Translations under genes and position numbers: made by a program
Notes under the pieces: model-generated
Database searches by the model: none
Told to the model about the DNA's origin: nothing
Seen by the model: the letters and a program-made list of their open reading frames with translations, nothing else
Source of the DNA: Moorena sp. SS36440bin_2
Lineage (GTDB): Bacteria > Cyanobacteriota > Cyanobacteriia > Cyanobacteriales > Coleofasciculaceae
Assembly: GCA_011524395.1 (NCBI GenBank)
Contig: WTKN01000264.1
Span: 1 to 32,518 of the forward strand
Length of the DNA stretch: 32,518 nt
Direction of reading: 5' to 3'
Shown here: one piece after another, positions 3,881 through 30,279 of the stretch
Layout of the letters: every line of letters starts with the position of its first letter
How positions within the stretch are numbered: the stretch's first letter is position 1

Positions 3881-6280
3881 ATGCCTGAACAATATATATC
3901 ACATAGCTATCGTATTCTTCAAGAATATAAAACTTCAATCTACTGTAGAACCTATCAGGTAAATGATGATAGTGCAGCTGCCCAACCTTGTTACTATATA
4001 GCCAAAGAATATAAGCCTCTTTCTGAAGAACCAGAGGTAATGGAAGAAGCTCAAAAGCTTTTCAGACAACGTGTCCAAGAGATAAGGGCTTTAAAAATTA
4101 ACGGTATAGCAAATATTAAGTATCAGTTTCGCCAAGGCAATAGTTTTTATATACTTCGAGATTATATAGAAGAGAATACTATTGAGGCAGAGATTAAAAA
4201 TGGAAAGTTATTCAATGAGGAAACAGTTAAGATAATTCTAAGAAAATCTCTAGAGATTTTAGTTCAATTACATGAGCAAAAAATAGCTCAGGGTAATATT
4301 AGGGCTTCTAACATAATATATTCAGGAGACGATCAACTAACTCTTCTTGATATTGGAGATTTAAACGAAATCGGTGGGCTACAGATAGTTTCGGGTAAGG
4401 TGTCTATTGCTCTAGACAAATATAATGATCGTTACAAAGCACCCAAAGGGAATAAAGAGAGGTATCGAGACGATCTATATGCTTTGGGAGTTGTTTGTAT
4501 TGAGATGATCAGATCTCAGATTAATCCTCAGCTTATTAGTCACCAATCTACTAAAGAAACTATATGGCGTTATCACGTTCCTGGGAAACGCCCTTTACAG
4601 ATTAGCGATGCATTTGCAAAGATCATAGACAAAATGATTCTTTATGAACCCCAAGCTCGCTATCAGTCAGCTAAAGAGATATTGAATGACTTAGACCAAC
4701 TCCTTGATTCTAAGTCTAAAATCCCTGCATATGACAAGACTCAGCTTAAGATAAGTATTCTTAGATTTAGGAAAAAACTATTTTCAAATCCAGTATATGC
4801 TCTATTGATTATAGTTTCTTTAATTGGTTTTGCTTATCTATCAATAGGAGTAATTCAAACTGTTATAAGTTTTGTTAATCCTAAAACTTGTCCACTTAAG
4901 ATTGGCGATAATATAAGTTGTGGTGAAGAGAGTCTTTTTTCGGGTGATCAACCAACCAATAAAAATGATGGCCTTAAAGCATATTATGAGCAAGAGTACC
5001 AAAAAGCTTCAGAGTTTTTTAAAGTTTCCTGGGCAAAAGAAGATAGAGATCCAGAAACATTAATTTACTGGAATAATGCTAAACTTAATACAAATATCAA
5101 TATAAAGCCCTATACTATTGCGGTTGGAATTCCTATCAGAGTAGACGAAGATACAGCCAAAGAGTTACTTCGAGGAATTGCTCAAGCTCAAGACGAGATC
5201 AATAACTCCGAAGTTAAGATCAATGGTAGACCGCTGAAAATCTTAATTGCCGATGATCATGATGATGTCGCTCACGCTAAGCGTCGGGCAAATCAAATAG
5301 CTTCTCAAAGTGAGGTTATAGCTGTAGTTGGTCATTATGCTAGTGGAATTACTCTTAAAACCTTGGAAGTTTATCAAAAACATAAAATAGTTATAGTTGC
5401 TCCAATCAGTAGCTCAGAGTCTTTGACAGATTTCTGTATTAAGCAGAAACAGTGCTTCTTTTTTAGAATTGTTGCTAATCATAATCATGCAGCAACATAC
5501 TTGGCTGATTTATTACTTGATGACTTAGAAAAAAAAGGTCTTGAAAAAACAGCTGGGGTTGTTTATAGCCACCCCGATGATTATAGTAAGTCGTTTAAAT
5601 CCGTTATTGAAAAACGTGTTCGAGAAAAAGGTAATTTTATTAATTTAGAACCTAACGATCTCTCAATCCGAGCGTTTGATGCTGGACAAATTATTGATCA
5701 CGCTCAGCAAAATCAAGTAAATGCAATTTTTGTAGTTCCTGAAGGGAGAAATACAAATTATGCAATTCCTAACGCAGTAAATTTGATTAAACTTAATCAG
5801 GGTCGGCTATTGCTTGGAGGAGCGCCATCATTATACCATCCTCAGACCTTAAAAGACCTATCCAACGAGAGTAAAAGTGTACTATCAAAGTTTATAGCTT
5901 ATTCTGATTGGCACCGCTTGAAAGGGTGCGTAGATACTGCTGAGGGAAAAGCCTTTTGCCAGCAAGCTTCCAAACTATGGAAAACAACTCAGCTAAGTTT
6001 GAGAACAGCCACTGGATACGATGCCATCATGACCATCGCTAAGGCTCTAGAGACTTTACCAAACTCCGATCGAGTCAAGTTACAAGAAGCCTTAAGTAAT
6101 AATAATTTTAGTTACTCAGGTGTAACTGGGACAGTCAAATTCAAACCAGATGGTAACCGCACAGAGCCACCAGGAGCAGCAGTTAAAGTTATACGATCAA
6201 CATGTGATTCAGCTTACCAGGGATTAGAATTTGTTCCCATTGAGTATGTGAGTGAAAGACCATGTCAGTTGATTGAATAG
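3881..6280 (+). CDS. Transmembrane receptor: pseudokinase domain plus periplasmic LivJ-type binding domain
   Basis: Predicted 799-residue membrane protein. Residues 1-275 resemble a bacterial Ser/Thr kinase fold: AKEY with K42 could be the VAIK lysine and DIGD (157-160) sits at the DFG position. However, the HRDxKPxN loop reads QGNIRASN (137-144), so the catalytic Asp is Asn and the Lys is Arg. No glycine-rich loop is visible. One membrane helix spans about 305-331. A short TPR-like stretch follows (GLKAYYEQEYQKASEFF), then a periplasmic-binding domain of the branched-chain amino-acid type to the C-terminus (IAVGIPIRVDEDTAKELLRG, VIAVVGHYASG). ATG 3881 is preferred over the in-frame TTG at 3860 because the fold begins just after it. 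The GTPase gene follows after 9 bp. The ligand and output are unknown. Confidence 0.8.
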   Translation: MPEQYISHSYRILQEYKTSIYCRTYQVNDDSAAAQPCYYIAKEYKPLSEEPEVMEEAQKLFRQRVQEIRALKINGIANIKYQFRQGNSFYILRDYIEENTIEAEIKNGKLFNEETVKIILRKSLEILVQLHEQKIAQGNIRASNIIYSGDDQLTLLDIGDLNEIGGLQIVSGKVSIALDKYNDRYKAPKGNKERYRDDLYALGVVCIEMIRSQINPQLISHQSTKETIWRYHVPGKRPLQISDAFAKIIDKMILYEPQARYQSAKEILNDLDQLLDSKSKIPAYDKTQLKISILRFRKKLFSNPVYALLIIVSLIGFAYLSIGVIQTVISFVNPKTCPLKIGDNISCGEESLFSGDQPTNKNDGLKAYYEQEYQKASEFFKVSWAKEDRDPETLIYWNNAKLNTNINIKPYTIAVGIPIRVDEDTAKELLRGIAQAQDEINNSEVKINGRPLKILIADDHDDVAHAKRRANQIASQSEVIAVVGHYASGITLKTLEVYQKHKIVIVAPISSSESLTDFCIKQKQCFFFRIVANHNHAATYLADLLLDDLEKKGLEKTAGVVYSHPDDYSKSFKSVIEKRVREKGNFINLEPNDLSIRAFDAGQIIDHAQQNQVNAIFVVPEGRNTNYAIPNAVNLIKLNQGRLLLGGAPSLYHPQTLKDLSNESKSVLSKFIAYSDWHRLKGCVDTAEGKAFCQQASKLWKTTQLSLRTATGYDAIMTIAKALETLPNSDRVKLQEALSNNNFSYSGVTGTVKFKPDGNRTEPPGAAVKVIRSTCDSAYQGLEFVPIEYVSERPCQLIE

Positions 6281-6289
6281 GAAAACCTG

Positions 6290-7663
6290 ATGAATAATAC
6301 AGAAAAAACTGTTATTGCAGTAACTGGTCATACCAATTCCGGTAAAACAACTTTGATCAGAACGTTAACCAAGAGCAATGTCGGTCTAGTTGCTGACCAA
6401 GCACACGCAACAAAAAAGACTGAAACGATTCGCTATGATACTATGCAAGCCTGGTTCGTTGATTGTCCAGGTTTTGAAGTTGCATATTCTTGTTTACTCT
6501 ATATGAGAGCTAAAAAACAAGAGATTTCTCCAGAGAAATTAGCCAACATATTTCCTGTAGATACGATGAAATATGACCTAAGAGCAATAGAAGCAGTAGA
6601 GCAAGCAGATGTGGTCATATACGTTGTCGATACTTTAAATGATGTGCCGGAAACAGGACATGATCAAGAAATTGAACTTTTAAAGGAATTAAATAAGCCG
6701 ATTATTGGGATTGGTAATAAAAGCCGAACAAGAAATGATCAGCATGTCAAACGAATAACTAAGTGGGAATATTTTTTTAAACGAAACCATATAAATCATT
6801 ACATTATGTTTGATGGTTGGTGGGATGAACCATCCAAAGTTACTCGGATTTATAGCTATGTAGAAAATTTATTGTCTGGTCACAAGAAAGAAAGATATCG
6901 CATAGATCTTGAAAATTTCAGAAATAGACAACTTGAAATTTTAAGGGAAGCTTCAAATTTTATGTATGACTGTATCCAAGGATGCAGCAAAGTCAAAAGA
7001 CAAAAGGGTATTGATAATTCTTTACCAGAAGATGTTCTGATTAAGCAAATACTTCTTGAAGTTAAACAGTTGTTAGAGGAATTTAATGAAAAAGTGTCAA
7101 GGCTTTATACATTAGCAGCGGACAATCCACTCCAAGGAGTTAATGACCTTAAATTTTATACAAACAACTTTACAAAGCCTAGAGATGTATTTGATGGTGC
7201 CGCTGCTGGTATAGGCATTGGGACTGGAGTCGGTGCTGTTATAGGTGGGATAATCGGTTTTCTGATTGGATTGCCTGTTGGTGCTGCTGGTGCTGGACCA
7301 GCAGCACTACTTGGTTCAACACTAGTTACTTCAGCACTAGCTGCTTCACAGATAGGGGGTACTGCTGTTGGTTTCTTGGGAGGAAGTCTTGGTGCTGTAG
7401 TCTCTTTAAATAACAATATACTGATTGCTCTCAACTCAAATGATAAACAATCTATAGCTACTACTTGCCTAGCCATTATATGGGGAGTGTCTTACCACGG
7501 TTATGGAAACAGCCCAAGAATAGGAGAGGAAAAAATTGTTGGGCTTTTAGAAACAATTAAAAATTTCCAAGACAACAGATATATTGTTTGGGATAAACTA
7601 AGTCAAAAACAGGTGTTTGAAGAATGTAAACAGTTTTTTGATAAAATAGAAGGTAGGCTGTGA
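6290..7663 (+). CDS. Era/DUF3482-like GTPase with glycine-rich membrane segment
   Basis: The 457-residue protein starts with a P-loop, GHTNSGKTT (residues 13-21). DCPG at 58-61 is the G3 motif, and VVIYVVDTLNDVPETGHDQE follows. The G4 position reads GNKSR (142-146), so the guanine-specifying Asp of NKxD is absent. Residues about 301-373 are a long Gly/Ala-rich hydrophobic stretch (GIGIGTGVGAVIGGIIGF...), a glycine-zipper-like membrane segment as in DUF3482-type GTPases. A charged region of about 60 residues (ILREASNFMYDCIQGCSKVK) lies between. It is the second gene of a tight unit with the receptor (9-bp gap), so it may transduce the receptor's signal; this link is inferred from position only. 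Confidence 0.75.
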   Translation: MNNTEKTVIAVTGHTNSGKTTLIRTLTKSNVGLVADQAHATKKTETIRYDTMQAWFVDCPGFEVAYSCLLYMRAKKQEISPEKLANIFPVDTMKYDLRAIEAVEQADVVIYVVDTLNDVPETGHDQEIELLKELNKPIIGIGNKSRTRNDQHVKRITKWEYFFKRNHINHYIMFDGWWDEPSKVTRIYSYVENLLSGHKKERYRIDLENFRNRQLEILREASNFMYDCIQGCSKVKRQKGIDNSLPEDVLIKQILLEVKQLLEEFNEKVSRLYTLAADNPLQGVNDLKFYTNNFTKPRDVFDGAAAGIGIGTGVGAVIGGIIGFLIGLPVGAAGAGPAALLGSTLVTSALAASQIGGTAVGFLGGSLGAVVSLNNNILIALNSNDKQSIATTCLAIIWGVSYHGYGNSPRIGEEKIVGLLETIKNFQDNRYIVWDKLSQKQVFEECKQFFDKIEGRL

Positions 7664-7705
7664 GGTGGAATTTGTAACAAAGCTAACGGGTTGCTTGTCG
7701 TCCCG

Positions 7706-7900
7706 TCAGGAGGCATAGAGAAGTGCTGCCTGCAAATCATTTGCCTCTAAATCAGGCATTTCTTCTAAGATTTGCTCAGCAGTAAGTCCAGCCGCAAATA
7801 AATCGAGTATATCCGATACTCTAATTCTCATACCTCGAATGCAAGGGCGACCACCGCACTGTCTTGGATTAATCGTAATTCTTTTAAGCAAATCTGACAT
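7706..7900 (-). CDS. DUF433 family protein (orphan antitoxin-like)
   Basis: A 64-residue protein, MSDLLKRITINPRQCGGRPC then IRGMRIRVSDILDLFAAGLT. It matches the DUF433 pattern (NPxxxxGxPxIxGTRI, DIL, G.s.eeIle..P.L...dl.AAL.Y). These small HTH proteins are commonly the antitoxin half of a pair whose toxin (PIN-like DUF5615) overlaps the 3' end. No such partner is visible in 7664-7705 or nearby. ATG 7900 is chosen; the longer TTG start would add only three residues. Family confident, role inferred. Confidence 0.8.
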   Translation of the reverse strand: MSDLLKRITINPRQCGGRPCIRGMRIRVSDILDLFAAGLTAEQILEEMPDLEANDLQAALLYAS

Positions 7901-7943
7901 ATATAGCAATTCTTAGAGTCATGAGGACAAAGCTTATCCCTTT

Positions 7944-8132
7944 AAGGCAAAAGGCAAAAGGCAAAAGGCAATAGTTAAGAGGGTTTGAACCGATGCAGCG
8001 CCTTCACGCGGGGGTTCCCCCCATGAGCGACTGCATCAAGAAAGGGAATCGGTGTAAAATAATACTGTACCTCATAACTGCGATAAACGCTATAGCTTTA
8101 CTCCAGAGTGATAACTGCGATAAAAGCGATCG
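7944..8132. repeat. Tandem aaggcaa array and divergent copy of the palindromic agcgatgcag element
   Basis: 7944-7972 is a 7-bp tandem array (aaggcaa). 7991-8040 reads cgatgcagcgcc...gactgcatcaag and is a divergent copy of the palindromic element found inside genes elsewhere in the window. 8078-8131 has two copies of aactgcgataaa next to a HIP1 site. Confidence 0.65.
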
Positions 8133-11640: not shown

Positions 11641-11866
11641 GATGGGATGATTGCGCTTAAGCAATGGTACACGCTTTCTTATTCGCTTCTTGTTCCGCTT
11701 TTAATTTCCGTAATCGAACTATACCGGGAGGAGGGTTTAGTTCTTGAGCTTTTTGTTGCTGATGACTCCATTCCAGCCAGTCAGAAATATATTGGCTGAC
11801 AACTTCTTTGTTGTTTAAGTAGTATATAATTGTAGCATAAACTTGTTCTAAGGTAATGGTATAAAA

Positions 11867-12064
11867 AGCGATGCAGCGCGGTCTTGGGGAGGCAGCGCCG
11901 CCAAAGGGGGTCTCCCCCCGGAGACGAAACCTTAGATAGTGGAGCCTTTATAGTTAGCAGGTTATGCAGAAAAGGGTTAAATCTTTTTTAATAAGGCTCC
12001 ACTATCTTACGGTAACTTCTAACCATGAGCGACTGCCGTGGTTTCCCCCATGAGCGACTGCATG
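11867..12064. repeat. Compound palindromic element inside the DUF433 gene
   Basis: The left part (11867-11930) begins agcgatgcagcgcggtcttg and contains a second hairpin (gggggtctccccc). The right part (12024-12064) contains ccatgagcgactgc twice. The middle is occupied by a MITE with its own inverted repeats. The block resembles the 52-53-bp element seen at 19107, 29898 and 12264, enlarged by internal duplication and insertion. Confidence 0.7.
11935..12006. mobile_element. 72-bp MITE with 14-bp perfect terminal inverted repeats
   Basis: GATAGTGGAGCCTT (11935-11948) is the exact inverse of AAGGCTCCACTATC (11993-12006). Both sides are flanked by TTA (11932-11934 and 12007-12009), a likely 3-bp target-site duplication. 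No coding capacity. It is nested in the palindromic element that itself splits the DUF433 gene. Confidence 0.75.
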
Positions 12065-12263
12065 GCTGACACAGTTAAGAATTTCTTCTGGAGTGCGATT
12101 CCGATAAATGTACTCATACAGCACATTCTCAATGCCCACTCGCGTTCCTTTGATCCGAATATCATCAGGAGCAATAAAATCAAAATAGTCTTCTATTTTC
12201 ATCAGAACAAGATTGATAATTGGTAATTTTAAAAGCACTGTTTAACCAGATTACCCTCAAAGT

Positions 12264-12315
12264 AGCGATGCAGCGCGGTCTTGGTGGTTTCCGACCTGAG
12301 CGACTGCATCAAGAC
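12264..12315. repeat. Palindromic agcgatgcag element at the 3' end of the ABC-class ATPase gene
   Basis: The 52 bp begin agcgatgcagcgcggtcttg and end gactgcatcaagac. The element supplies the stop codon of the adjoining minus-strand ATPase gene, which now ends SVS*. Without it that gene would end SVL* two codons past Ser. Confidence 0.75.
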
Positions 12316-14012
12316 ACTGATAGAGTCCGCAATCGATTGAGCGCTGCTGCTAATTCTAAGCGGCGGAATTGGACTAAATCCCCTTCAGGAAAGAACGTTA
12401 GTACATCGAATCCTTCTTCTTCAATATCTTTCATCACCAGATCTAAAATTTCCGATAGGGTCAACCGTTCATCGATATACTTTTCTTTAGCATAAACAAG
12501 AGCTTTGGAAATTGCTCTTAACTGACCTACTTCTACAATCTGCTCAACAGCAGATAAATCAATATTTTCTGCACCAAATCCTACTTCATCTACATCTCGG
12601 ACTTTTAATTTTACGGCTTTGCGTCCACGACTGGGGTCAATCCCATGGGCTAATGGTACTCGTGGGGTAATAGTTCCAAAGTTTTTCCCACCTTCAGCGG
12701 TGCGTTCGGTAAAGTATTTTTCGGCAATTAACTGAGCCTTTTCGGTGACATCCTGGGGTTGGAAGTTGTCCATGGCAATGACGGTATCGGCTACATCAAA
12801 GTAATCTCCACTGCCTCCCATGACTAATATAGTAGAGACACCATACTCGCTATAGAGCTGTTTGATTTTATCAATAAATGGTGTAATGGGTTCTTTATCT
12901 TTAGCAATCAGCTCCTGCATACGGCGATCGCGAATCATAAAGTTAGTTGCTGCTGTGTCTTCGTCTACCAACAGTAACTTGGTACCGGCCTCCAGTGCTT
13001 CCATAATATTTGCGGCCTGGGAGGTGCTACCACTGGCATTAGTGGTGGAAAATTTTTCAGTAGAGCGACCGTGAGGTAATTGATTAATAAATGGTGAAAT
13101 ATCTACACCAGAAATCCCCCGACCATCTTCAGCCCGAATCTTGACGGCGGTGGGATTGGTGACTACTAATTCCCGTCCATCTCCAGGAATATGATTGTAA
13201 ACGCCTAATTCAATGGCTTTGAGCATTGTGGATTTGCCGTGATAGCCACCTCCTACAATCAAGGTGATCCCTTCTGGGATTCCCATACCGGTAATTAATC
13301 CTCGATTGGGACAAGTGAATGCTACTTCAAGTGTCTTCGGAGATTGAAATGCGATCGCATCCTCTTGTAATGGTTTGTCATCCACCCCACTGGAGCGTGG
13401 CAAAATGGCACCGTTAGGAATAAAGGCAACTAATTCACGGCTTGCCAGCTGTTGACGCAACCAATCGGCATCTTCCACGGTTTCTACATGATGCTTAATG
13501 GCAGCGGGATCGAGGACTTCATACTTGATGGATTGCTCTATAATATCAGGGATATCTTGGCATAGCATTTCTGCGGCCTGACGCCCAGAAATCCTCCGAC
13601 CACGAGCTGGTAATCCTACCACAAACCGGATTTCTAGCCCTTCATCACTCACCAAAGCGGAGGTGCGCTCCAGCACGGATTGTCCGACACGGTTAATAGC
13701 AATCAAGCCACTATTTCCGGTACCCCGCCGACAGCTCATTTCCCCAGCTACCCAATCAAAGGAGCGAGTTAGATAATCCTCTAGGGCGATGGCTCGGCTG
13801 TCAGTGCGATACAGCTCACTGGGGAAACCAGCCACTGACTGTGGTAAGTACACCCGCACTTGGCTAGGAGAGGCAAAGGGGTCTCCCTGAACCCTGTCAA
13901 TGACTAGAGTGAAATCTGGAAACTGATAGCTGCCCTTGATATCTCGGTAGGATTTGTAGCTGCGGTCATCGAGTTGTAGGAGTAACGACTCCAATTGATT
14001 GCTAGTGGCCAT
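12309..14012 (-). CDS. Predicted ABC-class ATPase (ABC_ATPase, PF09818 type)
   Basis: A 567-residue soluble protein. The N-terminal domain (about 1-230) carries DFTLVIDRVQGDPFASPSQV and LPARGRRISGR, both typical of the ABC_ATPase family. The P-loop is GGGYHGKST (about residue 253), preceded by GMGIPEGITLIVGG. The Walker B region is KLLLVDEDTAATNFMIRD, and the SGSTSQAANIMEAL segment resembles the ABC signature. The C-terminal part is acidic (DLVMKDIEEEGFDVLTFF). The cellular role is unknown; RNA repair or RNA-binding links exist for some relatives. The last codons and stop come from the palindromic element at 12264-12315, a tolerated change. ATG 14012 begins the conserved N-terminus. Confidence 0.9.
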   Translation of the reverse strand: MATSNQLESLLLQLDDRSYKSYRDIKGSYQFPDFTLVIDRVQGDPFASPSQVRVYLPQSVAGFPSELYRTDSRAIALEDYLTRSFDWVAGEMSCRRGTGNSGLIAINRVGQSVLERTSALVSDEGLEIRFVVGLPARGRRISGRQAAEMLCQDIPDIIEQSIKYEVLDPAAIKHHVETVEDADWLRQQLASRELVAFIPNGAILPRSSGVDDKPLQEDAIAFQSPKTLEVAFTCPNRGLITGMGIPEGITLIVGGGYHGKSTMLKAIELGVYNHIPGDGRELVVTNPTAVKIRAEDGRGISGVDISPFINQLPHGRSTEKFSTTNASGSTSQAANIMEALEAGTKLLLVDEDTAATNFMIRDRRMQELIAKDKEPITPFIDKIKQLYSEYGVSTILVMGGSGDYFDVADTVIAMDNFQPQDVTEKAQLIAEKYFTERTAEGGKNFGTITPRVPLAHGIDPSRGRKAVKLKVRDVDEVGFGAENIDLSAVEQIVEVGQLRAISKALVYAKEKYIDERLTLSEILDLVMKDIEEEGFDVLTFFPEGDLVQFRRLELAAALNRLRTLSVS

Positions 14013-14334
14013 AATTGCAAGCAGAAAATTGCTTGTTAATTGTCAATGGTTACTATACCAAAGGGAACAGGGAACAGGGAACAGGTAACAGGGAACAGCG
14101 CTGCATCAAGACAGGTATTCATGACTTTTGAGTGTTGACTACCCTGATGACTATTGAGTGATGACTATTGAGTAATAACTTAAGCTATCAGCTATTAGCT
14201 TTTAAAGAAAACAAGTAACCATTTGTTTAATGTGAGTGAAGTCACAGGCTGGAAGCCTGTGCCACTAAGCTGAACGCGCACGCGTGGCCATTCGCGTAGC
14301 GTCGCCAACGGCCAAGGCCTTCCGCTTACGTTTA
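14013..14334. repeat. Repeat-rich spacer: gggaaca array, CACAGGCT palindrome, GC-rich repeat
   Basis: 14063-14098 is a gggaaca heptanucleotide array. 14098-14115 is a fragment of the palindromic element (cgctgcatcaagac). 14130-14180 has several copies of tgactattgagt. 14243-14261 is a perfect palindrome, CACAGGCT-GGA-AGCCTGTG. 14271-14289 (tgaacgcgcacgcgtggcc) recurs exactly at 18353-18371. No gene is seen. Confidence 0.7.
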
Positions 14335-18476: not shown

Positions 18477-19515
18477 TTAGTTAAAGTTCTGTTGGAGCCA
18501 GTTGAGTAAGTCTTCACTGGTCTGAAAATCCCAGATGGCTTCTGAGAAACGCTCTAGCTCTTGATTCGTCAAAGCTTCGATTAATGCCATGATATTACTG
18601 GTTAGTTTGCCAAAACGGCGCTCAAGCTGTCGCAATATTACCCTTTTTTCCCCTTGTACTCGTCCCTGCATTATTCCCTGTTCTATTCCCTGTATTATTC
18701 CCTGTTCTATTCCCTGTATTATTCCCTGTTCTATTCCTTCCCGTTGAGCTAGACTCAATGCACCTCGCGTGTCTTCTAACACCATCTCCTGCTTGCGGAG
18801 TTTTTCCAATTCTGACACACTCAACCCCGCTTGATTGGCTATAGTTAAGGCTTTTTCTAGCTGTGGGATTTCCCTGAGATTATCAGGAATAATTTCTAAG
18901 CTGGGTGCTTCTTTGATAAAATATATCCACTTATCTATCACACTTTCTAACTCTTCCAGCTGTTTATTAAATTTGGGAAGTTCCACAAACACCATCGCTA
19001 ATTCATTTTCCTGATAAGCAAAGCGCTCTTCTTTTTCTTGAAAGTAAAAACAGCTAATTACTTTCTGTGTTGATGGGAACAGTTTAAAATCGGTGATGGT
19101 TAACGCAGCGATGCAGCGCGGTCTTGGGGGTTTCCCCCACTCGCTATTGCATCAAGACAATGACTGGATTTAGATCGAAATATCCCTGTCCCGACTTTAG
19201 TTGATTACCATAGGTTTTGCACAAGTTATAGACCACTCGCTTCTCGAAAGCCTCTACATTCCAGATTTGCATTTCAATCAGCACAGTTGTTCGATCCTCT
19301 AATACTGCCTTAACATCCAGATAAACATCCACATAAGTCTCTTCTAACTCCACTACATTCCCGGCACTATAGGGATCAATAATTTCTAAATCCTGGATGA
19401 CCGAATCGCCGGAGTAGATCATGGCATTGAGGAAAGAAATCAGAATATCCTTACTTTCATCTGAGCCAAAGATTTTCTTGAATGCAAAGTCAGTTTTGGG
19501 ACTAATGAATCTCAT
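18477..19515 (-). pseudogene. Rpn-family nuclease/transposase gene split by the palindromic element
   Basis: The 5' part (19515 down to 19159) reads MRFISPKTDFAFKKIFGSDE then SKDILISFLNAM, and later VYLDVKAVLEDRTTVLIEMQ; this is the PD-(D/E)XK core of Rpn recombination-promoting nucleases (acidic D then ExQ). It stops just after NPVIVLMQ, inside the inserted element. The 3' part resumes ALTITDFKLFPSTQKVISCF and continues through VFVELPKFNKQLEELESVID to 18477. That tail has three GIEQGI(I/M)QG repeats. Deleting 19107-19158 joins PVI to ALTITDF exactly in frame. The halves together would give about 329 residues, a normal Rpn length. Confidence 0.88.
19107..19158. repeat. Palindromic agcgatgcag element inside the Rpn gene
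   Basis: The 52-bp element begins agcgatgcagcgcggtcttg, has a gggggtttccccc hairpin core and ends attgcatcaagac. It lies in antisense orientation relative to the element's copy in xisH with respect to transcription. No target-site duplication is visible. Confidence 0.85.
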
Positions 19516-21712: not shown

Positions 21713-22088
21713 AGAGTTCTCTCCATTATCTTGTAATCATTCAGCTGATGGGATACGCCCACGCTGTCTTCATGCAGTTCCTCCCCACTCGCGCTTGGGA
21801 TCAAGACAACAGGTAAGCATTCATTTAATCTGAGTTACCTCCCAGCGTGACGCTGTTAGCTAAAAGCTCAGGGCTGATGGCTGAATGCTTACTATATATT
21901 GACTACTGCTCGGAAGTTACCAATTCCCGATTCTAAATTCGCGCATTCTACTTGGTGGTGCGTTACGCCGCGGGCTATCCTAATACTGGCTACGAAGTGG
22001 AAAATGAGGGCAAGCCCGCCCCTAACACACCCTACATTCTGCTGCTATAATTCTTAATTCTTAATTCTTAATTCTCAATTCTTAATTC
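21713..22088. repeat. Repeat-filled spacer with degenerate palindromic element and aattctt array
   Basis: 21770-21810 is a degenerate copy of the palindromic element (catgcagttcctccccactcgcgc...atcaagac). 21955-22035 has GC-rich repeat text (gcgttacgccgcgggc, gggcaagcccgcccctaacac). 22047-22108 is an aattctt/aattctc heptanucleotide array that runs into the 3' end of miaA and encodes its last residues. No gene is seen. Confidence 0.65.
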
Positions 22089-23280: not shown

Positions 23281-25728
23281 ATGACGAGTAGTTACAGTGC
23301 CGATCAGATTCAAGTTCTAGAAGGTCTCGAACCGGTGCGGAAACGCCCAGGGATGTACATCGGGACAACTGGACCTAGGGGTCTCCATCATCTAGTCTAC
23401 GAAGTTGTAGACAATTCCATCGATGAAGCGCTGGCTGGGTATTGTACTCACATCGAAGTTGATATCAATAGCAATGGTTCCGTAACCGTTACCGATGACG
23501 GACGAGGAGTTCCTACGGACACCCACCCTACCACGGGTAAATCCGCACTGGAAACCGTAATGACCGTACTTCATGCCGGTGGTAAATTTGGTGGTGGCGG
23601 CTATAAAGTCTCTGGAGGATTGCACGGTGTTGGTGTTTCCGTAGTCAATGCTCTGTCTGAGTGGGTAGATGTAACGGTGTGGCGGGAGAAAAAAGAACAT
23701 ACCCAGCGCTATGAGCGGGGTGTGCCCATGACTGAACTACTCGTCAAGCCCTATAAAAAGGCCCACACTGGTACCTCAGTAAACTTCAAGCCAGATACCG
23801 AAATCTTTACTGGCGGTATTGAGTTTGATTACACTACCTTATCCGGACGTCTGCGGGAACTGGCTTACCTGAATGCTGGTGTTAAAATTACCTTCTCAGA
23901 CCATCGCCTGGAAGAACCCAGAGTAGAAGCCTATCACTACGAGGGAGGTATCCAGGAATATGTCGCTTACATGAACCGGGAAAAGCACCCCCTACACGAG
24001 GAGATTATATATATACAAGGGGAACGCAAAAGTATCCAAGTGGAAGTGGCACTACAATGGTGCATTGATGCCTATAGTGATAATTTGCTGGGTTTTGCTA
24101 ACAATATTCGCACCATTGATGGTGGTACCCACTTGGAGGGGCTCAAGACAGTCTTGACCCGAACCATGAATGCGATCGCACGCAAGCGCAATAAAATCAA
24201 AGAAAGTGAGTCTAACCTAGGTGGTGAGAATATCCGAGAAGGATTAACTGGGGTGATTTCTGTCAAAGTCCCAGAGCCAGAATTTGAAGGTCAAACCAAA
24301 ACTAAACTGGGAAATACAGAAGTAAGGGGCATTGTAGATTCCCTAGTTGGGGAAGTCTTGACTGAATACCTGGATTTTCGTCCCCAAGTAGTTGATACTA
24401 TTTTAGAAAAAGCGATTCAGGCCTATAAAGCCGCAGAAGCTGCTCGTCGTGCTCGTGAATTAGTGCGGCGCAAGTCAGTACTAGAGTCTTCTCCCTTACC
24501 CGGTAAGTTAGCCGATTGTAGTTCTCGGGACCCAGGGGAATCAGAGATATTCATCGTTGAGGGAGATAGTGCAGGGGGATGTTTTTCTGGAGAGACACAG
24601 GTTGCCCTGGCTGATGGACGGTCTTTGAGCTTCAAAGAACTTGTAGCTGAACAAGCTATGGGTAAAGAGCATTGTTGCTACACCATTACCAATAACGGCA
24701 GCATCGGAATAGAACGAATTATCAATCCCAGAATGACCAAAGCCAATGCTGAAGTCATCAAACTTACCTTAGATAACTCAGAAACCATTATTTGCACTCC
24801 CGATCACCGCTTCATGTTGCAAGATGGTAGTTATAAGCCAGCAGTATCTCTGACCCCTGATGATTTGCTAATGCCTCTGTATCGCCCACTGGCAGAAATC
24901 AGGAAACAGGCACAAGTCAAAACCGAAAAGAAAGAAGCCTATTCCGCTGTTGCTGGTAATCAGACACAGGTTTGTGACGCTGTTGCTAACTATAACTACC
25001 AAGTTGTTTCCATTGAATCCCTAGAACAATTGGTAGATGTCTATGATATCGAAGTGCCTCATACCCATAATTTCGCTTTAGAGAGTGGGGTGTTTGTTCA
25101 CAACAGTGCTAAACAAGGACGCGATCGCCAATTTCAAGCCATTCTCCCCCTGCGTGGTAAAATCCTCAACATTGAGAAAACTGATGATGCCAAAATTTAC
25201 AAGAACACAGAAATCCAATCCCTAATTACAGCCCTAGGGCTAGGGATTAAAGGAGAAGAATTCGACCCGTCCAATTTACGCTACCACCGCATTGTAATAA
25301 TGACTGATGCTGATGTGGATGGCGCTCACATCCGTACTTTATTACTAACCTTCTTCTACCGCTATCAACGAGCCCTTGTGGACCAAGGGTACATCTACAT
25401 TGCTTGTCCTCCCTTATATAAACTAGAACGAGGTCGCAACCATAACTATTGTTATAGCGATCGCGAACTACAACAGCGAATTAGCCAATTTCCTGAAAAC
25501 GCTAACTATAACATCCAACGATTCAAAGGATTAGGTGAAATGATGCCACAGCAGTTGTGGGACACCACCATGAATCCAGAAACTCGCACCATGAAGCAAA
25601 TCGAAATAGAAGATGCTGCTGAAGCAGACAGAATCTTTACTGTACTCATGGGAGACCGCGTTGCTCCTCGCCGCCAATTCATTGAAACCTATGGCGCTCG
25701 ACTCAATCTAAACGATTTAGATATTTAG
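23281..25728 (+). CDS. gyrB: DNA gyrase subunit B with an embedded mini-intein
   Basis: An 815-residue precursor; removing the 175-residue intein leaves a 640-residue GyrB of normal length. GyrB supplies the ATPase and TOPRIM parts of gyrase, which negatively supercoils DNA. The GHKL ATPase motifs are present: [21 protein letters not shown] and [15 protein letters not shown]. The TOPRIM motif EGDSAGG is split from [11 protein letters not shown] by the intein and regained on splicing; [19 protein letters not shown] follows. The C-terminal GyrA-contact tail has [15 protein letters not shown]. Start ATG 23281. Splicing is required for an active enzyme. Confidence 0.98.
24580..25104 (+). other. 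GyrB mini-intein (no homing endonuclease)
   Basis: 175 residues between EGDSAGG and SAKQGRDR, the same site as the Synechocystis GyrB intein. Cys1 opens block A ([18 protein letters not shown]). Block B carries TPDH (73-76). Block F is [14 protein letters not shown], block G is SGVFVHN with His174-Asn175, and the +1 extein residue is Ser. All residues for self-splicing are present. No LAGLIDADG or HNH endonuclease domain fits in the short linker (about residues 105-138), so it is a natural mini-intein that cannot home by itself. Confidence 0.96.
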
Positions 25729-26764: not shown

Positions 26765-27002
26765 TCAAGTCCAGTAGGGTGTGTTAGGGACGGGCTCGCA
26801 CTAATTTTCAGCCTGGTAGTGTTGGGACAGTCCGTCCCGTAACGCACCACCAGTAGTAGGGTGGGCAAATAATCAATGTAATACCATTTTTACATCAATC
26901 ATGTCCATTTGCCCACCAAACCTGAGTGTACTTCATTAGGGTGGTACTATAATCAAAGTAATACCATTTGATCACCAATCATCGACCTTTGCCCACCCTA
27001 AT
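26765..27002. repeat. Palindromic repeats: GTGTGTTAGGGACGGGC and GGGTGGGCAAAT families
   Basis: 26774-26850 is a copy of the gtccagtagggtg...gtcccgtaacgcaccacc repeat. 26857-26920 and 26938-27000 are two palindromic units whose ends read gggtgggcaaat and tttgcccaccct, with taatcaatgtaataccatt inside. A third such unit lies at 27803-27868. Confidence 0.75.
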
Positions 27003-27772: not shown

Positions 27773-27873
27773 TTTCTCTCCATTTTGTGGTTGTAAGTAG
27801 GGGTAGGGTGGGCAAATCATCAACCATTAACCAATTGATCATCAATCATGTCTATTTGCCCATCCTACTTTAT

Positions 27874-27981: not shown

Positions 27982-29760
27982 GGATGCTGGTGGCGAAATA
28001 TTGTGTAACATTAGCCTGGGAAAGTATTTAGAGCTGCAAAGCTAGAAATGCGAGTACCAGCGAGAGGAATCCCTTGAACCCAAGCAAACAGACGCTTGAG
28101 ATTGATAGCCGTTGCAGTCATGACATGTTGCAAATGGGTTTTGGCCAGTCCTCGATAGCGGCTGTGTCGAATACCAAAGCCAGTAACAGCTTGAGAAATC
28201 GTTCCTTCAATGCCTGCCCGGAGGCCGTAGTATTTCCACCATTGTGGTGAGGCTTGCTGCTCACGGGCTTGTAGTAAAGCTTGTTGCTGAGCTTGGGGTT
28301 GTAAGGTCAAAGTCCGGGGAGCCTTGGGGGAGCTAGTACACAACTCTCGTACGGGACAATCTCGACAAATGGATTTAGCAAACTCGATGGTAATAATGGG
28401 CGTATCTCGACGATGATCAAGACGTTCTCGCCAAGTGCGGCTTTGATGTCCCTCAGGACAAGTGACCTGGTGATTCTGCCAGTCAATCACAAAACGAGAA
28501 AAATCATAGGCATCTTCACGAGTCGCTTGCCAACTGGTGTCTGGCCTAACAGGTCCAATTAGCTCAATGCCATAATCGTTTTGGCTGGTGACGAGCAGCT
28601 GCGCATCTACATAGCCTGCATCCACAAAATGTTGGCTCGGTAACAAAGATTTTTGTGCTAAAGCCTGATGAATAATAGCAGTTTGTTCTACATCTTGGAC
28701 TTGAGCTGGAGTGGTTTCGACATGAGTAATCAAGTGAACTTGATCCGTTTCACAGGTTTCACTGACATGTACCTTATATCCAGTCCAAGACTTTGAGCGC
28801 TTCGTCCCAACCCGAGCATCACTTTCATAGGGGGAACTCAAACGCTCTCCGGGGGATGGCATGTCTTTGAGTGGGCGGAGTTTGATATGTCCGTGGGTCT
28901 TCATAATACTGATAGACCCAATATTGACGCAGTTGTTCAACCTTGGGTAAACGGCGTAGGTGCTTTGGGGTTCCCTCAAGCCACAGACACAAAGCGCAAT
29001 TTCATCCCGTCACGGCCAATTTGCTCCCCTAAGGCAGTGCGCTCTGACTGCTTTTTGGGGAGACGATAATCGTCTATGACTTTACCATAACGCTCAAACC
29101 ACTCAGGGTCTACCCAACGCAAGCAACCAGTCTGGTTTGGTCAGGGCAATTTCATTGAGTGTCGCTCTGAGCATTTCCCCGACCGCTTCAAGACGGTTCA
29201 ATTCTCGCAGGGTTGCGAGCACTTGGGTTGAGTCACTGCGTTGTTTAACTCTATCCTTAATCCATCCCCCTGCTTTGAGTTGGCTGAGTAACTGATTTAA
29301 TAGTCTGTCTCCTGCTCCTCCGTCTACCAAACGATTGCGAAATTCACGCTTGCCTGTATGGTCAAAGCCACTATCTTCGTTCCTCCAAACCCAAGGCATA
29401 TTTCCAGTCAATCCGACCTCTGACTGCATCTGCCGCCTGACGGTCTGGTAAGTTTTCCAGAAATTGCATCACGCTGACCAGGGCTAATTGTCCTGCACTA
29501 ATCCCTGGCTGTCCCTGGCTGCTATACAAGTCCGCAAAGTATTGATCGTGATAAATCTCTCCGAGTTCATCCCTGAGCCAGATATAGAGGTTCCCTTTCG
29601 GAAATGCTCCTAGGGCTACCCGACGAGTTTGCTCTGGAACACTGGCACCGATGGGCTTGACATCAAGCATTGCTCTTTCTCCTCTTAGTTCCCAACTCTA
29701 ACCATATCGTCAATGCTTTTACTCATTTTTTTGTTAAGCAATATTTCGCCACCAGCATCC
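27982..29760 (-). mobile_element. Insertion sequence, IS1182-like, 1779 bp, with GTCCC target duplication
   Basis: The ends are GGATGCTGGTGGCGAAATAT at 27982 and its inverse ending at 29760; identity holds for 22 bp, and for 26 of 28 overall. GTCCC flanks both sides (27977-27981 and 29761-29765), a 5-bp target-site duplication. The insertion split a dispersed palindromic repeat whose intact copy is at 26774-26850, so the empty-site sequence is known from within the window. The transposase is decayed. Confidence 0.9.
28011..29670 (-). pseudogene. Degenerate IS1182-like transposase
   Basis: ATG 29670 opens MLDVKPIGASVPEQTRRVAL and ISAGQLALVSVMQFLENLPD then RQAADAVRGRIDWKYALGL, an N-terminal DUF772-type domain. 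The frame shifts near 29385 into DSGFDHTGKREFRNRLVDGG, then again near 29115 (VDPEWFERYGKVIDDYRLPK) and again near 28960. The C-terminal part (28950-28011) has SDARVGTKRSKSWTGYKVHV, DAGYVDAQLLV, a CRDCPVRELC zinc-like motif and GLRAGIEGTISQAV, the DDE-type catalytic domain. At least three frame disruptions mean no active enzyme is made, though the ends are well preserved. Confidence 0.85.
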
Positions 29761-29809: not shown

Positions 29810-30279
29810 ATGGCCAAAGATATTTTCCACAATAAAGTTAAAATAGCTCTACAAAAAGATGGTTGGCTGATTACTCACGATCCCTATCAACTACGCTAGC
29901 GATGCAGCGCGGTCTTGGGGGTTTCCCCCACTCGCGCTTTGCATCAAGACACGGCATGGCTGATATCTATATCGATATGGCTGCGGAAGAAGCAATCGCT
30001 GCTGAGAAAGAAGGTTCTAAAATAGCAGTGGAGGTTAAAAGCTTTGCCGGTGGCTCAACTATCTCTCAATTTCACACTGCTCTTGGTCAGTTTATTAACT
30101 ATCGGATTGCCTTAGAAATCTCTGATGAGCCAGAACGCATTTTGTATCTGGCGATTCCCAAAGATACCTACCAAATGTTCATCAGATTTGAACCTGCCAA
30201 AACTGTGATTGAACGATATGAAGTCCGGTTAATTGTTTACGATCCGAATCATGAGGTTATTAACCAATGGATAAATTAG
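29810..30279 (+). pseudogene. xisH: xisH gene interrupted by the palindromic element
   Basis: ATG 29810 opens MAKDIFHNKVKIALQKDGWL ITHDPYQLR, then a TAG at the start of the element ends the frame. After the element the gene resumes GMADIYIDMAAEEAIAAEKE and runs to VINQWIN* at 30279, including IAVEVKSF, the ExK half of a PD-(D/E)XK-like site. Deleting 29898-29950 (53 bp) joins QLR-Y-GMADIYID in frame. XisH is a factor named from fdxN-element excision in Anabaena and is usually paired with XisI. The 13-bp overlap with xisI at its 3' end is kept. Confidence 0.9.
29898..29950. repeat. Palindromic agcgatgcag element inside xisH
   Basis: The 53-bp element begins agcgatgcagcgcggtcttg, has the gggggtttccccc core and ends ctttgcatcaagac. 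It is nearly identical to the copy in the Rpn gene (19107-19158), a sign of recent spread. Confidence 0.88.

What the first reader, a model, noticed from the sequence alone, without database searches (positions are those of the whole stretch)
29898..29950. Palindromic element of 52-53 bp sits inside genes and its exact removal restores each reading frame
Copies at 29898-29950 (xisH), 19107-19158 (Rpn gene) and 12264-12315 (ABC-class ATPase end) share agcgatgcagcgcggtcttg and end gcatcaagac. A compound derivative is at 11867-12064 (DUF433 gene). In xisH, the Rpn gene and the DUF433 gene, deleting exactly the element rejoins conserved family sequence in frame, with no target-site duplication. 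Such a small, scarless, gene-invading hairpin is unusual. It is probably mobilised in trans by an unknown enzyme. A less likely idea is that the element is removed or skipped (DNA excision, RNA excision or translational bypass), since both strands of the palindrome look alike.
Basis: partly seen in the sequence, partly recalled or inferred. Interest (0 to 1): 0.82.

Follow-up and report, generated by a model that had tools for sequence, protein, structure and literature searches.

The report
Tiny scarless mobile hairpins in cyanobacteria
A DNA hairpin only 51-53 letters long has spread through the genomes of the cyanobacterium Moorena, slipping in between two neighbouring letters without leaving a scar and sometimes breaking genes; it resembles very small mobile repeats described from other cyanobacteria, whose means of movement is, as far as I know, still unknown.

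Summary
The element is a dispersed hairpin family in the window's genus, Moorena: 241 matches to its 17-nt core (at most 1 mismatch, nested inner units included) in the host genome and 415, 333 and 130 in three sister species, none for the reversed control; 167 for the longer 19-nt left end in the host. At 20 occupied sites with an empty homologue, removing the element gives the empty site exactly at 16 and to within one A at 4; no duplication longer than 1 nt was seen. The Rpn, DUF433 and ABC-ATPase sites are empty in all three sisters; xisH is occupied in one sister, at the same base pair, by another arm variant, and no empty orthologue was found. The target is ^ANNG (95 of 118; chance 0.22). 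Few copies lie in ORFs (23 of 91, against 66% of random positions), 20 of these 23 shift the frame, and orientation is mixed, 13 to 10. This fits a non-autonomous hairpin element mobilised in trans, of the cyanobacterial 'small dispersed repeat' kind, not something skipped or removed. RAYT-like genes carry other repeats; the enzyme is unknown. A new variant of a known kind.

The parts
29898..29950 (+). 53-nt element inside xisH (CATCAAGAC end, ACTCGCGCTT right arm); a stop codon lies at its left junction
   Evidence: G001 carries a 52-nt variant with the ATGAGCGAC arm at the same base pair
29810..30279 (+). xisH gene (fdxN element excision controlling factor family) interrupted by the element
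   Evidence: joined protein matches PF08814 at 180.8 bits
19107..19158 (+). 52-nt element inside the PD-(D/E)XK transposase (Rpn-like) gene
   Evidence: exact empty sites in G001, G002, G003
18477..19515 (-). PDDEXK_2 family gene interrupted by the element
   Evidence: joined protein (first 243 aa given) matches PF12784 at 158.6 bits; ORFs on either side open
12264..12315 (+). 52-nt element at the stop codon of an ABC-class ATPase gene; only the last residue differs
   Evidence: empty sites in three species, with one base substituted beside the junction; joined translation
11867..12070 (+). 204-nt compound element in a DUF433 gene: the terminal hairpin module with a nested inner unit and a ~110-nt structured cargo
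   Evidence: exact empty sites in G001, G002, G003; a paralogue in G003 has a different 53-nt variant at the same base pair
11657..12238 (-). DUF433 gene interrupted by the compound element
   Evidence: joined protein matches PF04255 at 30.9 bits
7989..8041 (+). divergent copy (interior CGCCTTCACGC), ending CATCAAGA before A
   Evidence: no empty homologue found
14098..14112 (+). 15-nt remnant (GCG + CTGCATCAAGAC) at the edge of a heptamer array
21766..21807 (+). derivative with right-type ends on both sides (GTCTTCATGCAG ... GGGATCAAGAC)

Best explanation
This is a non-autonomous mobile hairpin, 51-53 nt in its simplest form. Its ends are AGCGATGCA...TGCATCAAGA(C), with a variable hairpin interior. 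It inserts next to a target beginning ANNG (the base before is mostly A or T), with no duplication beyond one A, and it nests in its own kind, in other palindromic repeats and in heptamer arrays. It belongs to the kind of very small mobile repeats ('small dispersed repeats') described from cyanobacteria, amplified to hundreds of copies in Moorena. An enzyme acting in trans on the folded single strand (ssDNA, or an RNA copy) most likely joins the ends to the target. On the bottom strand the layout is CNNT^GTCTTGATGCA-hairpin-TGCATCGCT^, i.e. insertion 3' of a tetranucleotide, with the element itself ending in a CNNT (CGCT), which looks like IS200/IS605-type chemistry. Copies inside genes are recent disruptions, not introns. 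Shown: dispersal, exact empty sites, target motif, scarcity in genes, nesting. Inferred: the folded strand as substrate, trans mobilisation, the chemistry.
For: Core matches with zero reversed-pattern control. Empty sites: 16 of 20 exact, 4 of 20 one A off (window sites). Target ANNG at 73 of 86, 17 of 23, 5 of 6 and 0 of 3 sites in four end classes, 95 of 118 in all, against 0.216 for G at that offset from a random A. Left base A at 117 of 118. 23 of 91 in ORFs versus 1210 of 1820 random positions. Longer forms of 62-297 nt, mostly nested or with cargo. Hairpin more stable than shuffles, z -1.9 to -3.9 in six folds of three copies. The pair just outside the conserved core is kept in 24 of 31 distinct contexts by three Watson-Crick types plus one wobble, shuffled maximum 21. 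The core occurs in other Cyanobacteriales. The host genes show purifying selection over the divergence of the sister species (pN/pS 0.10-0.26), which fits insertions young relative to that divergence.
Against: No enzyme was identified. 3 of 30 fetched Y1-transposase loci contain an end motif within about 1.5 kb; 3 of 11 RAYT-like loci contain one anywhere in the 6-8 kb fetched, all more than 2 kb from the gene; reverse-transcriptase loci: 4 of 30. The one-nucleotide play at the 3' junction (GAC|A, GA|A, GAC without A) is not what I recall of IS200/IS605 enzymes. Covariation beyond the first outer pair does not exceed the shuffles; pair 6 only equals their maximum. The scarcity in ORFs could partly reflect target preference. 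Re-use of one base pair in xisH by two variants is not explained.
Confidence: 0.74

Rival explanations
1. REPIN/RAYT-type element: a REP-like palindrome moved by a RAYT (REP-associated Y1 transposase).
For: Palindromic, dispersed, sometimes clustered, no target duplication; RAYT-like genes (label mine, from recalled motifs) exist in Moorena.
Against: None of the 11 RAYT-like loci has the element beside the gene; 8 of the 9 shown have, by eye, other palindromes or repeats on the flanks, such as GTAGGGTGGGC...GCCCACCCTAC. No GTAG foot. Some copies lie in genes.
Confidence: 0.1
2. Retro-type spread through an RNA copy of the hairpin, reverse-transcribed by a host or group II intron RT, as I recall was proposed for the Nostoc repeats.
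For: Structured element; 3'-end play of one base; RTs are common, and in the three sister species RT matches rank like core matches (22, 42, 49 against 130, 333, 415).
Against: The host breaks that ranking: 8 RT matches with 241 core matches. No link of RT genes to element ends (4 of 30 loci).
Confidence: 0.22
3. Programmed removal or bypass: the element is excised from DNA or RNA, or skipped by ribosomes, so the genes stay functional.
For: Exact frame restoration. xisH is occupied in two species at the same base pair yet shows 4 nonsynonymous to 7 synonymous differences (pN/pS 0.15).
Against: Copies are scarce in ORFs and lie in both orientations. The interrupted genes that I could recognise are transposase-like, antitoxin-like or multi-copy. 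G001 xisH has a second, 47-nt insert. The two species carry elements of different length (53 and 52).
Confidence: 0.03
4. Ordinary MITE of an existing insertion sequence, with terminal inverted repeats cut by a DDE transposase.
For: Imperfect terminal repeat GATGCA/TGCATC; conserved ends with variable interiors.
Against: No duplication longer than one base at 20 of 20 sites. No believable long copy up to 6 kb in the loci held; the whole genomes were not searched for one.
Confidence: 0.06

Closest known systems
Small dispersed repeats (SDR) of Nostoc/Anabaena (Elhai et al. 2008, Genome Res 18:1484; paper not held, content recalled; citing passages seen in PMC4390886, PMC3116915, PMC2884548)
   Same: Very small dispersed mobile repeats in cyanobacteria with precise insertion (the SDR5-in-HIP1 statement was seen in PMC4390886). 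Recalled: nesting within themselves, location in heptamer arrays, compensatory changes.
   Different: Here 51-53 nt and up to ~300 nt when nested, against a recalled 21-27 nt; in Moorena, with an ANNG target. Whether any Elhai family equals the shared core could not be checked.
REPINs / REP with RAYT
   Same: Palindromic, non-autonomous, many copies
   Different: No GTAG foot; RAYT-like genes in Moorena carry other repeats beside them; inserts singly and sometimes in genes
Rickettsia palindromic elements (passages seen in PMC10969869)
   Same: Palindromic elements found inside coding genes
   Different: RPEs are ~150 bp and lie in frame; 20 of 23 ORF-interrupting copies here have lengths not divisible by three
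IS200/IS605 derived palindromic elements (recalled)
   Same: No target duplication, insertion next to a short tetranucleotide, hairpin ends
   Different: No IS copy with these ends found among the loci examined; junction varies by one base

Membership tests
Cyanobacterial SDR | Size 21-27 nt (recalled) | tested here: not met
   Simple forms are 51-53 nt
Cyanobacterial SDR | Precise insertion with empty homologous sites | tested here: met
   16 of 20 exact, 4 of 20 one A off
Cyanobacterial SDR | Nested copies and location in heptamer arrays (recalled) | tested here: met
Cyanobacterial SDR | Compensatory changes in the stem (recalled) | tested here: inconclusive
   Outer pair 1 kept in 24 of 31 contexts, shuffled maximum 21; pairs 2-5 within the shuffles, pair 6 equal to their maximum of 19
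Cyanobacterial SDR | Sequence identity with a named SDR family | not testable with these tools
   Paper not held; four literal sequence strings in no held paper
REPIN/RAYT | RAYT gene flanked by the same repeat | tested here: not met
   11 RAYT-like loci: 3 contain an end motif, all more than 2 kb from the gene; 8 of 9 flanks shown carry other repeats, by eye
REPIN/RAYT | GTAG (or CGTC) tag at the foot of the palindrome | tested here: not met
   Foot is AGCGATGCA / TGCATCAAGAC
IS200/IS605 derivative | Shares ends with a Y1-transposase IS copy | tested here: not met
   3 of 30 fetched Y1 loci contain an end motif within about 1.5 kb, not on both sides of the gene; together with the 11 loci, 41 loci of the matches were examined, not all
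IS200/IS605 derivative | Fixed short target on one side, no duplication | tested here: met
   ANNG at 95 of 118; no duplication beyond one A at 20 of 20 sites
MITE (DDE transposase) | Target-site duplication of 2 bp or more | tested here: not met
   0 of 20 sites
Rickettsia palindromic element | In-frame insertion in coding genes | tested here: not met
   20 of 23 lengths not divisible by three

The most novel reading that the evidence does not exclude
A 51-53-nt folded single strand is itself the complete mobile unit, joined by an as yet unknown trans-acting enzyme to ^ANNG sites. Its interior can be swapped as long as the terminal AGCGATGCA/TGCATCAAGA module is kept, and the same base pair can be re-used by different variants in different species.
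Probability: 0.4. Interest if true: 0.65.

Novelty: new variant of a known kind. Interest (0 to 1): 0.5.

Why it matters
How such very small repeats move is, to my knowledge, an open question since 2008. Moorena gives a clean test system: hundreds of near-identical copies, exact empty sites across sister species, a defined target and defined ends. It narrows the enzyme to one that tolerates variable interiors and leaves no duplication, and it makes the RAYT-like enzymes seen here unlikely. It is also a warning for annotation: short scarless inserts split otherwise healthy genes.

Tried and rejected
Rfam: no match at the gathering threshold in the window. Autonomous long copy: the only candidate over 310 nt was a chance pairing of ends in the window (4604 to 8042), rejected. 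Y1 transposase, RAYT-like and RT association: negative in the loci examined. Plasmids: three records with partial matches to the core, none covering 80%; phages: none. The core in two viral contigs lacks the hairpin right half, so a chance match. In one search I dropped one spurious pattern hit (window 13805-14112) and the rows where only occupied homologues were found; among the 20 sites counted, two lie at the same place of a cargo repeat and two at the same place of DUF433 paralogues. The 66% control uses random positions in the same loci, and its ORFs are mechanical, so some of the 23 may not be genes. Replication-strand bias was only eyeballed, because the listing is capped; no claim is made. 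Structure prediction was not used: there is no protein to fold. On rechecking I found that RT numbers track core numbers in three of the four genomes, and raised the RNA rival from 0.20 to 0.22.

Full report
What is there. The window is contig C421 of a 7.75-Mb genome. Its sister genome G002 has a contig of 8,262,658 bases, the length of the Moorena bouillonii PNG record NZ_MKZS01000001.1, so the genus is Moorena; the host itself is not named. The finding's three short copies are real, and the compound copy ends at 12070, not 12064. A 17-nt core with at most one mismatch matches 241 times in the host and 415, 333 and 130 times in G001, G002 and G003, with no match to the reversed pattern. One mismatch lets nested inner units in, so this counts units, not insertions; the 19-nt left end gives 167 in the host. 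Of 37 genomes searched, the four Moorena hold full copies, two others of the family only a 30-nt piece, and 31 nothing.

Anatomy. The simplest form is A|GCGATGCAGCGCGGTCTTGGGGGTTTCCCCC(ATGAGCGAC or ACTCGCGCTT or ACTCGCTAT)TGCATCAAGAC|A. Among the simple forms tallied there are 34 distinct sequences in 115 copies, one of them 46 times identical. Single-strand folds of three window copies on both strands beat shuffles by z -1.9 to -3.9. Of 155 copies of up to 310 nt bounded by both ends, 133 have the usual interior and 22 one of 14 others, so the ends are conserved and the interior is exchangeable; the sampling, mostly by the core, favours the usual interior. Longer forms of 62-297 nt are mostly nested: a second hairpin with GAGGCAG...CTGCCGT ends inside the loop, or a ~110-nt cargo with its own paired stem. 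At homologous sites the arms can differ (below), and the central TTT can read AAA, as if palindromic segments invert.

Empty sites. At the window's Rpn, DUF433 and ABC-ATPase sites all three sister species are empty at the predicted junction, at the last with one base substituted beside it. Over all loci held, 20 occupied sites had an empty homologue (orthologue, paralogue or repeat copy): 16 differ by exactly AGCG...GAC, and at 4 the empty site has one A more than that removal leaves. One repeat family with the CATCAAGAA end and one site with a neighbouring 12-base indel are among the 4. Two of the 20 lie at the same place of a cargo repeat and two at the same place of DUF433 paralogues. No site shows a duplication longer than one base. 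Exact removal with A on both sides can also be read as a one-base duplication of A.

Target. In 118 non-redundant insertions the base before GCGATG is A in 117. The ends fall into classes: CATCAAGAC (or GGCTGAC) followed by A (86), CATCAAGA followed by A (23), GAC without the A (6, all in heptamer arrays by eye), and GAG (3). With the A taken as the first target base, ANNG is met in 73, 17, 5 and 0 of these, 95 of 118 in all; G three bases after a random A in the same loci is 370 of 1715, 0.216. Placing the second and third class this way is my reading.

Genes. Of 91 non-redundant elements with at least 300 bp on both sides, 23 interrupt an ORF of 80 aa or more after removal (10 of them 150 aa or more), against 1210 of 1820 random positions in the same loci. 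Of these 23, 20 have lengths not divisible by three; 13 lie on the gene's strand, 10 against it. From reading the translations (labels mine, except the window's, which are Pfam) they include TnpB/IscB-like, PD-(D/E)XK transposase, DUF433, XisH and Uma2-like genes and transposase fragments, and some with no recognisable family. I recognised no essential gene. This is what selection against insertion in needed genes leaves, helped perhaps by target preference, and not what an efficiently removed element would show. In the window, XisH, PDDEXK_2 and DUF433 are matched along their families when the element is left out; the ABC-ATPase only has its last residue exchanged.

A result against the simple story. 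xisH is occupied at the same base pair in the host (53 nt) and in G001 (52 nt, other arm), and G001 has a second, 47-nt palindromic insert further on. Outside the inserts the two genes differ by 7 synonymous and 4 nonsynonymous changes, pN/pS 0.15. If the insertion were older than the split, the gene would have had to stay useful in spite of it. If it happened twice, it hit one of 57 ANNG positions in a 417-nt gene twice. A DUF433 site (host and a G003 paralogue, different interiors, the other G003 copy empty) and a PDDEXK_2-like site (G002 and G001, different arms) behave alike, so I favour re-use of preferred sites or replacement of one copy by another, but this is open.

Distribution. The exact 18-nt core was found in 22 of 386 genomes sampled from the phylum, all 22 in the host's order, with 136 matches in the host and at most 17 in any other (G001-G003 were not in that sample). 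By eye most of these continue into the same right half, which the pattern did not demand; three matches in other phyla (L082, L090, L099) do not and look like chance. Outside the core the ends differ by lineage: GATGCAG/CTGCATC in Moorena, Okeania, Xenococcus and one Crocosphaera; GAGGCAG/CTGCC or GAAGCAG/CTGCTG in Nostoc. The first outer pair is kept in 24 of 31 distinct contexts (23 Watson-Crick of three types, one wobble) against a shuffled mean of 13.7 and maximum of 21 in 500; pairs 2 to 5 lie within the shuffles and pair 6 equals their maximum, 19.

Enzyme. Y1 transposase: 70 matches in the four genomes. Of the 30 loci fetched, 3 hold an end motif within about 1.5 kb, which by my estimate is the background density. 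Eleven further RAYT-like loci (label mine): 3 hold an end motif anywhere in the 6-8 kb fetched, all more than 2 kb from the gene, while 8 of the 9 shown have other palindromes or repeats on their flanks by eye, e.g. GTAGGGTGGGC...GCCCACCCTAC. Reverse transcriptases: 4 of 30 loci; RT matches are 8, 49, 42 and 22 in G000-G003, so in three genomes they rank like the core matches and in the host they do not. So the element is not the REP of these RAYT-like genes, and no partner is known.

Mechanism. I hold most likely that a trans-acting enzyme works on the folded strand. Read on the bottom strand, the site is CNNT^ and the element itself ends in CGCT, the arrangement of elements inserted 3' of a tetranucleotide without duplication (IS200/IS605, recalled). 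The one-base play at one end speaks for something less exact. RNA-mediated spread, which I recall was proposed for the Nostoc repeats, remains possible.

Known or new. The kind is known from Elhai et al. 2008; I could not read it and describe it from recall. Passages citing it say that SDR5 inserts precisely in HIP1 (PMC4390886), name SDRs beside ERIC and NEMIS (PMC3116915), and describe them as some 20 bp long and possibly mobile (PMC2884548). Passages on Rickettsia palindromic elements were seen in PMC10969869. Searches of the held papers: small dispersed repeats (3 listed), Elhai's title (5 listed), Moorea with palindromic repeats (7 listed, none about this by title), SDR with heptameric repeats (none), four literal stretches of this element (none). 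So I found no description of this family in print, within those searches.

Noticed in passing
L040 (G001:C2:956001-970800), inside xisH: A second palindromic insert of 47 nt (AGGTGCGACCC...GCGCACCTA) breaks xisH in G001; a related palindrome surrounds or lies inside the finding's element elsewhere (L031, L033).
   Followed up: partly
L196, L198, L201, L204 and window 26856-26915, 27803-27862: RAYT-like genes in Moorena are flanked by GTAGGGTGGGC...GCCCACCCTAC palindromes; the window carries copies of that repeat. Other RAYT-like genes have different flanking repeats.
   Followed up: partly
window 23281-25728: The gyrB ORF (815 aa) contains an intein-like insertion (recognised by eye, not tested).
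   Followed up: no
L011, L020, L022, L026, L036, L037, L057, L123: Elements inside heptamer arrays lack the extra A and keep the heptamer phase.
   Followed up: partly
window 28011-29670: Transposase-like ORFs in three overlapping or broken frames just upstream of xisH (by eye).
   Followed up: no
L009, L043, L140 and window 11906-12030: The ~110-nt cargo repeat has a stem that changes on both sides between copies (GACAGTTGAGCC/GGCTCAACTGTC versus GATAGTGGAGCC/GGCTCCACTATC) and is itself a target of the element.
   Followed up: partly
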